Notes under the pieces: generated by a model
What the model saw: only the letters and a program-made list of their open reading frames with translations
Told to the model about the DNA's origin: nothing
Databases searched by the model: none
Shown: positions 26,632 to 64,000 of the stretch, in pieces
Layout: each line of letters begins with the position of its first letter
How positions within the stretch are numbered: position 1 is the first letter of the stretch
Translations under genes and position numbers: made by a program
From: Fabrea salina
Taxonomy: Eukaryota; Ciliophora; Heterotrichea; Heterotrichida; Fabreidae
NCBI GenBank assembly: GCA_022984795.1
Contig: JALIHJ010000020.1
Coordinates: 62,001-126,000 of the forward strand
Reading direction: 5' to 3'
Length of the DNA: 64,000 nucleotides

Positions 26632-28044
26632 ATGGAAAGGGGCTTTGTTAGTGTCTGTATTCGGAACTACAGACAAACTCCTGACAAAGTAGTGTTTTAC
26701 GTAGTTAAAGTGACTTCTGCTGAAACAAGTTGGACTCTAGAAAAAAGGTTCAGTGAGTTCTACTCACTTTACAAAGAACTTGACAGAAAGTTCTTAGGAA
26801 TTCCTTCGCCTCCTGGAAAAACTTTTTTTAGAAGCAACAGTCCTGAGTTCCTTGACTCCAGGAAGTCCCAGTTGGAGGAGTTCTTGCAGAGTTTGGTTTG
26901 TAACAAAGAACTCTACACCTGCAGAGACTTTCTTTCGTTTCTGGAAATTCCTAGTCACATTCCTTCTTTAGAACCCAAACAACCTAACTTAGTTGTAGAA
27001 GTCAAGCACTCTATGCCTGCTTACCAGCTGCACTACCAATCCCAAAACTTAGTTCTGTGTTCTCGAGTTACCAACATGGCTTTGAAGTTTGCTTACAATG
27101 TGAAGAATCTGGGGTTTTCGAATTCTGAAGGTGAAATCATTTCAGAAGCCTTGGGACAAGTGACTTTTTTGGACATCAGAAACATTTCTGCTGCAGAGCA
27201 CCTTTGGGACATAGGTATAGGGGAGTGTCTTACGTGTGTTCATTGGGAACCTTTGTTGACTATACTAGCAGTTGGCAGTGAGAGTGGAAGAATTTACTGC
27301 TTTTTAGTTAAAACTGAGTTGGGGTGCAGTACTTACGAGAACTACTGCTTGCTGCACCCACACAGTGGGCAAATTAACGGGATTGCTATGAACTACAACA
27401 ACTCTTACATGTACTCTTGTGGTGAAGACAAACGGTTAGTAGTTATTCAGCTTAAAAACCAAGAATGTGTTTCAGAGTACTTAAGCAGCGAGAAAATAGA
27501 CTTGATGAAAACTGACATTCAAAGAAAAAGAATTTACTTAGGAACTAGGGCAGGGGTGGAAGTACTGGACATCACCGAACCAACTCCAGAAGTAATTACA
27601 AAGGTTGAAAGCGGAAGCAAACTAGTTGGACTGTGCGCAGAGGTGGGGTTAATCATTCAGGGACGTTCAGATGGGTTCATCAACGTTTACCAACAAGGCA
27701 CAGGAACCAAGGAGAAGTTCTGCAGAGTACTGCACTCTTTTAGAGTTAAAACAAAACTCACCAGTATTGACTTTTCTAAAACTAGAAGAGAAATATATCT
27801 AGGCAACAACGAAGGCACTGTTTCAGTCTATGATTTGAGGGACGGGAACCTGATCAGTAGTTGGAAAGCACACCAAGAAAGTGTGCTGTGTTTGTACTGG
27901 ATTCAAGAAGAACAAGTGCTAGTTTCAAGTGGCAACGAAAGTTACCTGAAGTTTTGGAACTTGCCTGAAGACTGGAAGATTCAAATAAGCCCTTTAGAAG
28001 AAACTAAACAAGCCCCGGTCGACTTATCAGGATGGCATAAATAA
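26632..28044 (+). CDS. PX domain-WD40 propeller protein
   Basis: 470 aa. The PX domain covers about 1-115: KRFSEFYSLYKEL, a PPGKTFF proline/basic loop and a basic stretch SRKSQLEEFLQ, as needed for phosphatidylinositol 3-phosphate binding. A beta-propeller of WD40-like repeats follows (about 155-455; VHWEPLLTILAVGSESGRIY, MYSCGEDKRLVV, VLVSSGNESYLKFWNL). PX placed before a propeller suggests an endosomal scaffold. Metazoan proteins with this combination are unusual, while FYVE-WD40 (WDFY) proteins are the closest functional analogue (inference). Stop 3 nt from the convergent Argonaute stop. Confidence 0.88.
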   Translation: MERGFVSVCIRNYRQTPDKVVFYVVKVTSAETSWTLEKRFSEFYSLYKELDRKFLGIPSPPGKTFFRSNSPEFLDSRKSQLEEFLQSLVCNKELYTCRDFLSFLEIPSHIPSLEPKQPNLVVEVKHSMPAYQLHYQSQNLVLCSRVTNMALKFAYNVKNLGFSNSEGEIISEALGQVTFLDIRNISAAEHLWDIGIGECLTCVHWEPLLTILAVGSESGRIYCFLVKTELGCSTYENYCLLHPHSGQINGIAMNYNNSYMYSCGEDKRLVVIQLKNQECVSEYLSSEKIDLMKTDIQRKRIYLGTRAGVEVLDITEPTPEVITKVESGSKLVGLCAEVGLIIQGRSDGFINVYQQGTGTKEKFCRVLHSFRVKTKLTSIDFSKTRREIYLGNNEGTVSVYDLRDGNLISSWKAHQESVLCLYWIQEEQVLVSSGNESYLKFWNLPEDWKIQISPLEETKQAPVDLSGWHK

Positions 28045-28047
28045 CTT

Positions 28048-30351
28048 TTAAAGATAAAACTGACTCTTAGTGGTAGACCAATAGGCATGGGGTGCAGAGG
28101 GGTGGCTTCTTTCTCCAATGTGGTAAGCAAGTTTGTGTGCAAACTGACACGGAGACGGCTTTCGGATTGAGCCACACCAGTTCCAGTAAGAGTAGCATAG
28201 CCTGTAAGTAAGCACTTGCACTTGGTCAGCTGAAAGTCCAGTGTCGTCGTAAAGCACAAAACAGTGCGTAGGAGATGCCACACCTTGGTTTGTGGTTACA
28301 GGACAGATGTAAAAGTCCCAGCCCTGGGGGTGAACTACCTGGGTGTCAACACAAGTTCCAATAGGAGGGTTCTTGACTTCTTCAGCTGTGTAGAACCTTG
28401 CATTGGTGCGTCTGTTGATGATCAAAAACAGAAGCTTGGGCCTTTGAGGAACTTTTCCTTGCTGCAAAAGAGTTTCAAGGGCGTTTAAGTAGTTAGGTAC
28501 TTCAGTCTGCAAGGCCTCTGCACGGCCAGAGTCAGAAATTCCTTCCCTGTAAATAATAACTTGTTGAGGGTAAGTTTGGTTTACTGAGCAGTAAGTCTCT
28601 AGAGCTTTGAGCATGGACTCAGTAAAGTTCATAGCAGCAGTTGTGTGACCGAGTTCTGCTACTGGACAAAACTGGGAAAAGTTAGGGTCCAAACTAGCAC
28701 AGAGTCCTATAACTGAGTGAAAATTTCTTTTGCTAAAAACTTCAACACCAACTACCATGGTGTTTGTTCCGCTTTGAGGAAGGTTTTCAAGCAACCAAGG
28801 AGTGCCTCCTATTTTAGCAACTATTTGGATAATCACTTTGTTGACTACTGAGCGCAGTGCCCTGTCTCTTTTAAGTGTGTTGTTCAAAACAACTTGCGAA
28901 GGCACAGGGAAGTCCCTGATCAAAAGTGACTTGAGTGGGTCGTAAAGTTTAGACTTGCCTCTGGAGCCTGGAAGTATGCATATGATAAACTGAACGTCAG
29001 GTGCAAGTACCTCCCTAAGTCTTGCTTCCCATTCGTTCCAGTTGTTAGTGCCGAGTCCAAAACTAGCAGGGGGACCAGCACTGACTCTAAAGGTTTTAAG
29101 GGCTTGTTGCATTGTGCTTTTAAAGGCTTCCACTAGTCTTTGGTCTGACTTCACATAAAAAATTCCCCATTTTTTAAGCCCAGGATGTTTAAACAGTTGC
29201 CTTGTTCCTATATCAGTATCAAAAGAACCCTTCAGGGGGTTTATAGTAAAGCTTTCTTGTCCTGTTTGCACTCTGCCAGGCTCAACAACTTTGGCAACTA
29301 CTTCGGTGGGGTTTTCTTGGATGTCAACTCTCCAACTTTCCATGACTTCTGAGGTTTTTTGTTTGCTTTTGAGGTTTCTAATTAGACCTCTGCAGTTGTT
29401 AATTCGAGTTTTGGGAAGAGATTTGGTTTTTTCAGACAGTTCCTTCATCAACCCAAAGTCAGACCTCATAGCATCAGTGATTCCTGTCATGATGCACAAC
29501 TCTGGAATTAAGTAAATCTGCCCAATTTCTTTTAAACTACTTACAAGAAGAGGTTGATCCTTGTTTTTAATAAGGACTCCCCACCTTCTTTGGTAGTAAC
29601 TGAGGAAACTTTCTTGTTGGCCTCCCACGTCAAACTTAAAACTGGGGTCTTTGTCAAAGTCCACACCTTCAACTCTGTAGCACTTTTTGTTGTACTTGGT
29701 CAGCACACAAGACCCAGTTACTAATTTCTCGAATTCTTGTCTAGGGTTGCCTCTGCATTCTTTCAGCATGTCAAAAACTGTAAGCGTTCGTATGCACCTG
29801 TAAGCCACGTCTACGTTCAACATGCACCCTCCTTCGAATTCATGGACTGCTGTGGAGTACCCTGGCCAGATTTCAAGTTTGTGCTTCTCCAGTTCAACTA
29901 CTCCGTTTTGGTAGTCGTAAAGTTTCCTAAGTATAGGCACCATGCCAAGTTTGCTCTGAACTACTTTCATAAACTTGTTGTAGAACTTAAACCTTTCCAG
30001 GTGGTCTTCGGCACTGCCTACTGGCTTGAAAGTAACTGTGTAGTTAGTTTCATCATAGCTAGTTTCAACTGAGAACTCTTCTGAAACTTCATTTGAGGCG
30101 TACACCACTGTGTTGTCGTACACAAAACTGCCTATTTTTTGCCTGACGGCTGAAGCAACTTTCCCTATGACTCTTTGTCGGAGACTTGAGGTTACTTGAG
30201 CGATGTTTGGAAAAAACTCAACAAAGTACTTTTGAAGGCCCTGAGTTTTCAGCTGGAACTTGAAAAAGTTGGAATGCAGCTTGACAGAAGTGCCCATAGT
30301 GGCTTGTCCAGGTCTTGAAGCCGGCATTAGCATGCCTTGATTCTCAGTCAT
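28048..30351 (-). CDS. PIWI-clade Argonaute with Glu at both catalytic Asp positions
   Basis: 767 aa from ATG 30351 (AAATTAATG context). The upstream in-frame extension lacks an ATG. The N domain is at about 20-210. The PAZ is at about 220-340, with SCVLTKYNKKCYRV and IYLIPELCIMTG. MID and PIWI domains follow, with IICILPG, and a PIWI-type C-terminus SPCQFAHKLAYHIGERSH. These match PIWI rather than AGO clade patterns. The slicer site is usually D-D-H: D in G(I/F)DV, D in YRDG, H near CQYAHKLA. Here they read E537 (VVGVEVF), E603 (YREGIS) and H739. PIWI proteins carry scan RNAs or other small RNAs that direct genome rearrangement or silencing in ciliates. Whether this one slices is uncertain. 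Confidence 0.95.
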   Translation of the reverse strand: MTENQGMLMPASRPGQATMGTSVKLHSNFFKFQLKTQGLQKYFVEFFPNIAQVTSSLRQRVIGKVASAVRQKIGSFVYDNTVVYASNEVSEEFSVETSYDETNYTVTFKPVGSAEDHLERFKFYNKFMKVVQSKLGMVPILRKLYDYQNGVVELEKHKLEIWPGYSTAVHEFEGGCMLNVDVAYRCIRTLTVFDMLKECRGNPRQEFEKLVTGSCVLTKYNKKCYRVEGVDFDKDPSFKFDVGGQQESFLSYYQRRWGVLIKNKDQPLLVSSLKEIGQIYLIPELCIMTGITDAMRSDFGLMKELSEKTKSLPKTRINNCRGLIRNLKSKQKTSEVMESWRVDIQENPTEVVAKVVEPGRVQTGQESFTINPLKGSFDTDIGTRQLFKHPGLKKWGIFYVKSDQRLVEAFKSTMQQALKTFRVSAGPPASFGLGTNNWNEWEARLREVLAPDVQFIICILPGSRGKSKLYDPLKSLLIRDFPVPSQVVLNNTLKRDRALRSVVNKVIIQIVAKIGGTPWLLENLPQSGTNTMVVGVEVFSKRNFHSVIGLCASLDPNFSQFCPVAELGHTTAAMNFTESMLKALETYCSVNQTYPQQVIIYREGISDSGRAEALQTEVPNYLNALETLLQQGKVPQRPKLLFLIINRRTNARFYTAEEVKNPPIGTCVDTQVVHPQGWDFYICPVTTNQGVASPTHCFVLYDDTGLSADQVQVLTYRLCYSYWNWCGSIRKPSPCQFAHKLAYHIGERSHPSAPHAYWSTTKSQFYL

Positions 30352-61598: not shown

Positions 61599-62579
61599 AT
61601 GAAAAAAGGACACACAGTTAACAACGACAACTTGTTTTTCGAAGACAAAGCAGGCAAACAAGACCCAACTTCTTACCCAACTAAGTTCGCCAAACAAAAG
61701 TTCCCGAAACCCATCAACAAAACTCAAAAAAACCAAATCAACAAACTTAAACACACTCAGCAACCCAAAGCACAAGAACAAGCAATCTACGACTTGTGGG
61801 AACAAGAGCAAGAAGTTCCACTCCGGGAAAAACCAAACCAGCACATTCCAGCAGTGATTCCTCCGCATCCCGGACAAAGCTACAAGCCTGACTCTCCTTC
61901 ACACAAGTCACTCTTAGAAAAAGTAATTGACGAAGAAGCTAAGTCAGAACACCAAACCCACGTTTACAACATGACTGTGAACAACTACAAAGTAGTTGAA
62001 GAGGACCCTGAACCCCCTGACCTGGAAGACCCCGGAGAAACCAACTTCATTCAAAACCCGCCTGTCAAAGCTAAGTTCCTCACCAATTCCGAAAAGAACC
62101 AGAAAAAACGCAAAGTCCTTAAAAAGAAACTTGAAGAAGAAATCAAAGCCAAACAAGAAGCACTCCAGAAAATCGATCAGATCCGAAGCATAATGAAGAA
62201 CCTTGAAAAGGAAGAGATCTCTCAAGAAATCAAAAGACTCCAAAAAGAACTCAAAAAAACAGAAGCCAAAGAACTAGAAGCCAAAGGAGAAAAAGCACCT
62301 AAAATCCGCAACGGCAAGTTCTGTTACAAGCTTCCAGCCACCACTGCCAGTTTAGAAGTTCCAGGGTCCCTAAGACAACTCACAGTCAAAGGCAACTCTG
62401 CTGAGGAAAGACTAGACTCACTTATAAGGAGGAGACTAATTGACGTTGAAGAACCTGAACCCAAAAAGCAAATTAAGGTCAAAGAATACACTCCTGGAGG
62501 CCAAGAAAAGAAAATGCACGACTCCAGGGCTAAGAAACAAAACGAACTTGAAACAGGAGTTATTTCTTTAAGCAATTAA
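61599..62579 (+). CDS. Hypothetical Lys/Glu-rich protein, 326 aa
   Basis: Not recognised. Start at ATG 61599; a nearby upstream ATG opens only a short frame. Highly charged. A Lys/Pro/Gln-rich N-terminal half (TKFAKQKFPKPINKTQKNQ), then a strong coiled coil at about 165-230 (KKRKVLKKKLEEEIKAKQEALQKIDQIRSIMKNLEKEEISQEIKRLQKEL). The C-terminus is PGGQEKKMHDSRAKKQ. It could be a cytoskeletal or centriolar linker. Its stop overlaps the RdRP stop by 4 nt. Confidence 0.7.
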   Translation: MKKGHTVNNDNLFFEDKAGKQDPTSYPTKFAKQKFPKPINKTQKNQINKLKHTQQPKAQEQAIYDLWEQEQEVPLREKPNQHIPAVIPPHPGQSYKPDSPSHKSLLEKVIDEEAKSEHQTHVYNMTVNNYKVVEEDPEPPDLEDPGETNFIQNPPVKAKFLTNSEKNQKKRKVLKKKLEEEIKAKQEALQKIDQIRSIMKNLEKEEISQEIKRLQKELKKTEAKELEAKGEKAPKIRNGKFCYKLPATTASLEVPGSLRQLTVKGNSAEERLDSLIRRRLIDVEEPEPKKQIKVKEYTPGGQEKKMHDSRAKKQNELETGVISLSN

Positions 62580-64000
62580 TCAACTAAAAGACTTAAACCT
62601 ATCATCCATGCATAGGCTGAAAACCCTTGTTCGTGTGAAACGAAATAACAAGCTGAGGCTAGTTGGGGCGTTCCACCAGCTTCTTGGAATTTCTTTGTGT
62701 GTTTTTCAATGATTTGGTTTGCTATGTAAGTCAGTGTTTGTTTGGTTTCTAATTCCCTTCTTTTCTTGTTGTAAAACCTAGACAGTTTAAGAACCTGGGC
62801 TGTTAGAAACTCTACTTCTGAACTGATTTCATACTGGTTCAAAGCAAGTTTTATGTCTTCGGAGTACTCACTAAACAGGTAGTTTGCAGTTTCAAGGTGG
62901 TCTTCGAAGCCAGTTACGAGTCTTTTAGGGTTCATCTGTGGAAGTGGGTCAGGTAAACTGTCAATGATTTTTCTGTGGATTTTCCCAAGAATCTTTTGGG
63001 AGAGGTAGGACTCTTCGTTGTCCTTTTCCATAAAGTCAGGGTACCCTTTGGGCTTTAGGTGCTTGGGCAAGTCAACTACTATTCCGTTTTTGGGAAAGTC
63101 CACGGCTATAGCGTGCTTTCTGCACAACTCTATGCACTTCTCGTCAAAGGCGTACTCCTCACTTTGGTCAGCTACGGCTAGGTGCGCGTTGTCTATTTGT
63201 CCAAGTTTGTCGTTGGTCACAAACTGCCAAAAGAAGTCTATTAGGTCTTTGATGCCTAGTGGAGGGTCTTTGTAAATAGGTTTTTCTTCGTCATACTTCA
63301 TGGGTTCGCAGGTCTTGGCTGGAATAAGTCTTGTGTCCCAGGTTATGAAGTATAGGTCGCCGTCTAAGTCGGACCCAGAGCATTCGTTAGGGTGGGGTCT
63401 TTTTCCTTTGCTGGGAAACACAACTACGTCTCTGTGGTGCTGCAGTTCGGGAATGTTTTTGGCTTGTAGCACCCTAACGTCGCCCGGGTGTAAGCAAGGG
63501 TTTTTCACAACTACAACAGGGCCTTCTAGCACTCCTATTCCTTCTACTTGGACAAACACCTCTCCGTACTCTAAAAGTTGGTACTCATCCAGCACTCCGA
63601 TGAGTACTCCTGACTTCTTCACGAGGATTTTGTGCTTTTTTTTTAGTTCTAACAAAGATAATTCCTTAAGGAGGTTCTTAAGTCGAATTATCACAGGTTC
63701 ATTGAACTCGTAGGCAATTTGGTTCAGGAACTGAAGCGCTAGGTTGTGTTTGATGTCTTGTCTCAAAGAACTGATGTAGTAGTAAAAGTTGGTTTCAATT
63801 TCAATCAACATTTCCATCAGGAGCTCCTCGAAATTAGAGTCAGGAATTCCTAAAGAGCTCAGAAGCATTATTATCTGCCTGTTTAAGTATCCGCTTCTAA
63901 ACTCTGAGTGGTTCAGCAAGTCCAGTTCTAAGTTCCCACTTTCGAACTTCACCATAGAGTCTCTGAGAACTACTTGCCTTCCACTCAGTCTAGGGTCCAG
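62576..64000 (-). CDS. RNA-dependent RNA polymerase, RDR/EGO-1 type, C-terminal part (N-terminus outside window)
   Basis: 474 codons of the C-terminal region are in the window; the frame is open to the right edge (LSGRQVVLRDSM...), so the upstream part is missing. It shows the eukaryotic RDR catalytic block: VLEGPVVVVKNPCLHPGDVRVLQA, HHRDVVVFPSKGKRPHPNECSGSDLDGDLYF (DxDGD, metal-binding), and the upstream RxSMxKFES segment. It makes dsRNA from single-stranded RNA for the small-RNA pathway, so it probably supplies precursors to Argonaute/PIWI proteins. The visible catalytic residues look intact. Confidence 0.95.
   Translation of the reverse strand: MDPRLSGRQVVLRDSMVKFESGNLELDLLNHSEFRSGYLNRQIIMLLSSLGIPDSNFEELLMEMLIEIETNFYYYISSLRQDIKHNLALQFLNQIAYEFNEPVIIRLKNLLKELSLLELKKKHKILVKKSGVLIGVLDEYQLLEYGEVFVQVEGIGVLEGPVVVVKNPCLHPGDVRVLQAKNIPELQHHRDVVVFPSKGKRPHPNECSGSDLDGDLYFITWDTRLIPAKTCEPMKYDEEKPIYKDPPLGIKDLIDFFWQFVTNDKLGQIDNAHLAVADQSEEYAFDEKCIELCRKHAIAVDFPKNGIVVDLPKHLKPKGYPDFMEKDNEESYLSQKILGKIHRKIIDSLPDPLPQMNPKRLVTGFEDHLETANYLFSEYSEDIKLALNQYEISSEVEFLTAQVLKLSRFYNKKRRELETKQTLTYIANQIIEKHTKKFQEAGGTPQLASACYFVSHEQGFSAYAWMIGLSLLVD

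What the first reader, a model, noticed from the sequence alone, without database searches (positions are those of the whole stretch)
28048..30351. PIWI protein with Glu in both slicer Asp positions
The protein is otherwise a typical PIWI with full N, PAZ, MID and PIWI domains. The two catalytic Asp positions (GxDV and YRDG in almost all slicing PIWIs) are Glu537 and Glu603, while the His near CQFAHKLA (H739) is kept. Both are conservative acidic swaps, so this is neither the usual active site nor an obviously dead one. It might slice slowly, have changed metal use, or be a guide-only PIWI. A matching pair of swaps suggests selection, not decay.
Basis: partly seen in the sequence, partly recalled or inferred. 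Interest (0 to 1): 0.78.

Follow-up and report, generated by a model that had tools for sequence, protein, structure and literature searches.

The report
PIWI protein with altered slicer site
A single-celled organism, probably a ciliate, carries a well-preserved small-RNA-guided PIWI protein whose cutting site has three of its four key residues changed, so it probably holds its targets without cutting them, as a few known PIWI relatives do.

Summary
In detail: an uninterrupted 767-aa PIWI (window 28048-30351, minus) has Glu537 (GVEV) and Glu603 (YREG) at the two slicer Asp positions and keeps His739. The tetrad is E-A-E-H, not D-E-D-H. Of 125 aligned PIWIs, 111 are DEDH; only this protein and a 97% identical database relative are EAEH. 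The four paralogs found in the same genome keep D-E-D-H or D-E-D-D. The guide-binding MID domain has 0 of 15 near-invariant positions changed, the active-site strip 9 of 19. None of the 20 differences to the relative lies on the 134 near-invariant sites, so the protein is maintained.

Best reading: a guide-loaded, target-binding PIWI that slices poorly or not at all, working like Drosophila Piwi (DVDK) or Tetrahymena Twi11p. The Glu pair is not itself evidence of a tuned metal site: all three changed near-invariant Asp residues in this protein became Glu. Slicing, expression and guide binding were not tested. New variant of a known kind.

The parts
28048..30351 (-). PIWI protein gene, 767 aa, one uninterrupted ORF; the relative P0001 begins at the residue matching Met7 (start then at 30333)
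29422..29748 (-). PAZ domain (residues 202-310)
   Evidence: Pfam PF02170
28777..29166 (-). MID domain (about residues 396-525, boundary set by me); 0 of 15 near-invariant positions changed; Y470, K474, Q486, K505, Q509, K513 kept
28111..28989 (-). Piwi domain match (residues 455-747)
   Evidence: Pfam PF02171
28741..28743 (-). Glu537 (GAA) in GVEV, first slicer Asp position, strand 531-541 of the model
28732..28734 (-). Ser540 (AGC) where 116 of 125 have His
28633..28635 (-). Ala573 (GCT) at the glutamate-finger position (E in 115 of 125), followed by a 2-residue deletion
28543..28545 (-). Glu603 (GAA) in YREG, second slicer Asp position, strand 597-603 of the model
28525..28527 (-). Gly609 (GGC) where 117 of 125 have Gln
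28135..28137 (-). His739 (CAC), fourth tetrad residue, kept

Best explanation
A functional PIWI paralog that has lost slicing, or nearly all of it, and works as a guide-loaded binding platform. It holds a small RNA through intact MID and PAZ domains, pairs with complementary transcripts and keeps hold of them, and silences by recruiting partners rather than by cutting. Shown: E-A-E-H tetrad, guide-binding half conserved, gene maintained by the amino-acid evidence, D-E-D-H or D-E-D-D in the four paralogs found. Inferred: that the site does not cut, that a guide is loaded, and that the output is small-RNA-guided silencing of transcripts or chromatin (in a ciliate possibly also DNA elimination). 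If its guides come from Dicer duplexes it must lose the passenger strand without slicing, or take single-stranded guides.
For: E537/A573/E603 where 111 of 125 aligned PIWIs are DEDH. The position of the first-strand Asp is described as conserved in all RNase H-like enzymes (PMC3985635, section 21 part 1 read). D669A makes human AGO2 catalytically dead, and D669 and E637 typically coordinate the second Mg ion (PMC11893014, passages). Mutation of the finger Glu abolished KpAGO slicing; in humans the finger is critical for cutting but dispensable for RISC assembly (PMC10772731, passages). Ser540 stands three residues after the first tetrad residue, as AGO2 His600 does, which bonds the plugged-in finger and is Lys617 in the non-slicing Drosophila Piwi (PMC7015924, passages; the residue match is mine). 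Near-invariant positions changed: active-site strip 9 of 19, MID 0 of 15, all 27 of 134; strip against the rest Fisher P 0.0036, strip chosen after seeing the changes. Maintained: 0 of 20 differences to P0001 fall on the 134 near-invariant sites, 3.5 expected; permutation P 0.017 with 123 sequences, 0.0009 with 14 that I take as ciliate-like. Branch about 1.1, near own2 and own3, about 1.0 each by adding branches. Model confident, pLDDT 92.2, pTM 0.89, best matched by guide-loaded PIWIs.
Against: No activity, expression, guide or target data. Two carboxylates and the His remain; R602 and E617, which match AGO2 Arg668 and Glu683 of the finger's plug (match by spacing, mine), are kept. Siwi with Val at the finger keeps reduced slicing. 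Glu is relatively common at the strand-4 position of other RNase H-like enzymes, and the same paper scored 'Asp/Glu' as the first-strand residue. I found no published Asp-to-Glu test in an Argonaute (0 papers; term absent from the 10 papers listed of 84).
Confidence: 0.72

Rival explanations
1. A slow or metal-shifted slicer: the two longer Glu side chains and His739 still bind one or two metal ions, perhaps preferring Mn2+, and cut slowly without the finger.
For: Acid at both strand positions and His kept; Siwi E708V keeps reduced activity while H874K has almost none (PMC7015924, passages); Glu at the strand-4 position is relatively common in other RNase H-like enzymes; R602 and E617 kept; E578, five residues after Ala573, could be imagined as a substitute finger (speculation).
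Against: The first-strand Asp position is described as conserved in all RNase H-like enzymes; three of four tetrad residues and two neighbours differ together; the helix after the finger starts at residue 577, against 568, just after E567, in the D-E-D-H control P0008.
Confidence: 0.13
2. A gene released from selection and drifting towards loss.
For: Near-invariant positions differ at 27 of 134, against 14 of 137, 16 of 138 and 21 of 137 in the D-E-D-H paralogs own1-3; 20 of 761 differences to P0001 against 11 of 768 in the own2/P0008 pair.
Against: Full-length frame in two distinct sequences, no indel; the differences avoid conserved sites; MID untouched; other PIWIs deviate at as many or more sites: L004 37 of 136, P0009 29 of 136, P0010 28 of 137, P0012 45 of 139.
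Confidence: 0.1
3. Sequencing or assembly error at the two GAA codons.
For: The window is one assembly; no reads were seen.
Against: P0001 carries both Glu and the Ala in a sequence with 20 other differences and comes from JGI/ENA sources.
Confidence: 0.01

Closest known systems
Drosophila Piwi (DVDK tetrad, non-slicer; PMC7015924, abstract and passages seen)
   Same: PIWI-clade protein that loads guides but does not slice; finger lost (Val653; here Ala573) and the finger-holding His lost (Lys617; here Ser540).
   Different: Piwi keeps both Asp and loses the fourth His (Lys818); here both Asp are Glu and the fourth His is kept.
Tetrahymena Twi11p (PMC5666084, passages seen)
   Same: PIWI of a ciliate described as lacking the conserved slicer catalytic core, beside a slicing paralog (Twi1p).
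   Different: Its residues were not compared; no Twi11p sequence was aligned, so orthology is untested.
Toxoplasma Tg-AGO (PMC2877743, passages seen)
   Same: Alveolate Argonaute said to lack the catalytic triad but to keep the 5'-phosphate pocket and bind small RNAs.
   Different: Single Argonaute of an apicomplexan; not aligned here.
Slicing PIWI Siwi, and the structurally closest solved PIWIs MIWI and EfPiwi
   Different: Siwi carries D670/E708/D740/H874 and EfPiwi GIDV and FRDG; here E-A-E-H.

Membership tests
PIWI-clade Argonaute | PAZ and Piwi domains in N-PAZ-MID-PIWI order | tested here: met
   Pfam PAZ and Piwi over cut-off; model aligned with PIWI chains over residues 14-767
PIWI-clade Argonaute | closer to PIWI than to AGO clade | tested here: met
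   the best 11 solved sequences are PIWI proteins, E 7.7e-108 to 4.4e-84; then HrAgo1 2.5e-47 and human AGO entries 1.5e-34 or weaker
PIWI-clade Argonaute | binds a small RNA guide | not testable with these tools
   MID residues kept; binding not measured
Slicer-competent PIWI (DEDH or DEDD tetrad) | Asp on strand 1 | tested here: not met
   Glu537
Slicer-competent PIWI (DEDH or DEDD tetrad) | glutamate finger | tested here: not met
   Ala573 plus 2-residue deletion
Slicer-competent PIWI (DEDH or DEDD tetrad) | Asp on strand 4 | tested here: not met
   Glu603
Slicer-competent PIWI (DEDH or DEDD tetrad) | His or Asp as fourth residue | tested here: met
   His739
Twi11p-type slicer-less ciliate PIWI | orthology to Twi11p | not tested
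   no Twi11p sequence was aligned; resemblance in kind only

The most novel reading that the evidence does not exclude
The E-A-E-H site is a detuned metal site kept for a purpose: the two Glu still bind a metal ion and grip the target backbone at the cleavage position without cutting, or cut only under another metal or a special guide, making a regulated clamp PIWI that works opposite the slicing paralogs.
Probability: 0.12. Interest if true: 0.72.

Novelty: new variant of a known kind. Interest (0 to 1): 0.38.

Why it matters
Drosophila Piwi became a non-slicer while keeping both Asp and losing the finger and the fourth His (PMC7015924). This protein shows another combination: finger lost, both Asp changed to Glu, His kept, beside four paralogs with D-E-D-H or D-E-D-D in the same genome. 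It is a natural test of which tetrad residues must go when a PIWI turns from cutter to binder, and of how such a PIWI sheds the passenger strand if it cannot slice.

Tried and rejected
Other Asp at the two positions: rejected by the multiple and pairwise alignments. Search for more E/E PIWIs with residues 525-615 as query: 40 candidates, only P0001 passed; the search needs shared exact 5-residue words, so distant cases could be missed. Profile search with 13 sequences added no closer relative. Carboxylate geometry: the tools gave model confidence and secondary structure but no coordinates, so distances at the site were not measured. dN/dS: the DNA of P0001 was not fetched (metagenome scans capped at 0; viral and genome collections not tried), so constraint was judged on amino acids only. 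Organism: the 18S search gave no answer; that the genome is Fabrea salina rests on its size (18,328,466 bases) and my recall of a published genome of about 18.35 Mb, whose paper (PMC9004412; title seen in reference lists) is not held. Pseudogene and assembly error: see rivals. Literature: searches; 'Fabrea' with 'Piwi' gave 0 papers, two of Argonaute, D669E and D597E gave 0. The library is limited by licence, so this does not show that nothing is in print.

Full report
What is there. The minus-strand ORF at 28048-30351 encodes 767 aa from ATG without a break. Pfam finds PAZ and Piwi strongly and ArgoL1 just below its cut-off. The best solved relatives by sequence are PIWI proteins: sponge EfPiwi, MIWI, Drosophila Piwi, HILI/MILI, Siwi. 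Codon usage fits the reading frame better (0.195) than the other five frames (at most 0.035), although the reference codon table included this gene itself.

The active site. I aligned 125 sequences: this protein, the four other PIWIs found in the same genome (L001-L004) and the 120 listed hits (193 passed). Column 537: D 121, E 2, C 1, gap 1. Column 603: D 123, E 2. Column 739: H 120, R 2, D 1, K 1, P 1. The glutamate-finger column: E 115, D 3, A 2, other or gap 5; this protein has Ala573. The multiple alignment and the pairwise one with EfPiwi agree on that residue, with two residues missing just after it. Tetrads: DEDH 111 of 125, DDDH 3, EAEH 2, DCDH 2, and seven single cases. EAEH is this protein and P0001 only. 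Ser540 replaces a His present in 116 of 125, and Gly609 a Gln present in 117 of 125. In human AGO2 His600, at the same spacing from the first Asp, bonds the plugged-in finger; Drosophila Piwi has Lys617 there (PMC7015924, passages; the match is mine). A review notes that this His is less conserved among PIWI proteins than among AGOs (PMC10772731, passages).

Is the Glu pair special? Of 8 Asp near-invariant (at least 90%) in the other 123 sequences, three differ here, and all three are Glu: 228, 537 and 603. Of 6 Asp fixed in nine close relatives, three differ here, again all Glu: 442, 537, 603. As a control, each of the nine relatives was held against the other eight: four of the nine had changes, six in all, three to Glu and three to Asn. 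So D-to-E is a common change of Asp in these proteins and the usual one in this lineage, and a matching pair needs no special selection. That the finger went to Ala speaks against a site kept purely for its acids.

Is the gene alive? P0001, from JGI and ENA sources, differs at 20 of 761 positions with no indel and shares all 27 deviations from near-invariant residues. None of the 20 lies on the 134 near-invariant sites (3.5 expected); mean conservation at the changed sites is lower than at random sites, P 0.017 against 123 sequences and 0.0009 against 14 that I take as ciliate-like. The comparable pair own2/P0008 differs at 11 of 768, so this gene changes somewhat faster. In the tree of 25 rows the pair sits on a branch of 1.1 inside a 12-row clade (support 100/99); adding branches, own2 and own3 reach about 1.0 from the same node. 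Deviation counts at near-invariant sites: this protein 27 of 134; own1 14 of 137, own2 16 of 138, own3 21 of 137, P0002-P0007 16 to 20, but L004 37 of 136, P0009 29 of 136, P0010 28 of 137, P0012 45 of 139. So it is an old, maintained paralog, not a recent wreck. Amino acids only: dN/dS could not be computed.

Where the changes fall. Of 134 near-invariant positions 27 differ: N-L1 5 of 24, PAZ 3 of 28, L2 1 of 5, MID 0 of 15, PIWI 18 of 62; residues 530-615 alone 9 of 19 (domain limits set by me). Strip against the rest P 0.0036, PIWI against MID P 0.011; three of four tetrad positions changed, P 0.026. These contrasts were picked after seeing the data. Y470, K474, Q486, K505, Q509 and K513 of the MID domain are invariant or nearly so across 49 sequences and kept here. 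This is the pattern of a protein that still binds guides and has lost constraint on cutting. R602 and E617, at the spacing of AGO2 Arg668 and Glu683 that support the plugged-in finger (match mine), are kept, so the site is not wholly dismantled.

Structure. AlphaFold2 with 49 sequences gives pLDDT 92.2, pTM 0.89; the control P0008 (D-E-D-H) 91.8, 0.88. Glu537 and Glu603 lie in strands 531-541 and 597-603; the control's Asp531 and Asp599 in strands 525-533 and 593-599. The helix behind the finger is 577-591 here and 568-587 in the control, whose finger Glu is residue 567. The best solved matches are guide-loaded PIWIs. Distances at the site could not be measured.

Mechanism. Literature seen as passages unless stated: the first-strand Asp position is conserved in all RNase H-like enzymes, whereas D, E and H all occur at the strand-4 position (PMC3985635, section 21 part 1 read), though its scoring scheme allows Asp/Glu on the first strand; AGO2 D669A is catalytically dead (PMC11893014); KpAGO needs the finger, and in humans it is dispensable for RISC assembly (PMC10772731); Siwi with Val at the finger keeps reduced slicing while H874K has almost none (PMC7015924). 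Against my reading, His739 is kept here and finger loss alone is tolerated in part by Siwi. The combination of a changed first Asp, a changed second Asp and a lost finger makes useful slicing unlikely, but I found no Asp-to-Glu Argonaute mutant in print and tested none. Drosophila Piwi shows the way of working I infer: a guide-loaded platform for co-transcriptional silencing, where slicing would release targets. In Tetrahymena, Twi11p lacks the slicer core beside slicing Twi1p, and Twi1p uses slicing to remove the passenger strand (PMC5666084); in Paramecium, PTIWI13 is described as the only PIWI involved in transgene silencing with potential slicer activity (PMC4937312). A slicer-less paralog therefore has precedent, and raises the question of how its passenger strand is lost.

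Setting. The genome (18,328,466 bases, 103 contigs) gave five PIWI genes in two searches, three RdRP matches, three loci with paired RNase III domains and three PiggyBac-type transposase matches: a small-RNA and perhaps DNA-elimination toolkit, fitting a ciliate.

Verdict. Observation confirmed and extended; interpretation partly supported. New variant of a known kind; moderate interest.

Noticed in passing
window 62576-63955 (-), frame running on beyond the window end: An RNA-dependent RNA polymerase gene (PF05183, E 3.1e-98) about 32 kb from the PIWI gene; the genome match is G000:C16:124966-126558.
   Followed up: partly
L004 (G000:C20:253433-257323): A distant fifth PIWI with an RG-rich N terminus and a D-E-D-D tetrad (Asp in place of the His), on the longest end branch of the tree (2.36).
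   Followed up: partly
P0009, P0010, P0012 (database proteins): Three related PIWIs with other altered tetrads: DPDR, DEDR, CMDK, suggesting that the slicer site changed more than once among these lineages.
   Followed up: no
P0003, P0004, P0005 (database proteins): Asp aligned at the glutamate-finger position (DDDH) in three close relatives; in P0003 and P0004 a neighbouring Glu could be the finger instead.
   Followed up: no
window, 22 of the 45 ORFs of at least 150 aa: Stop codons are almost all TAA: 21 TAA, 1 TGA, 0 TAG.
   Followed up: no
window 26632-28044 (+): A PX-domain plus WD40-repeat protein whose ORF ends 3 bases from the end of the PIWI gene (convergent pair).
   Followed up: no
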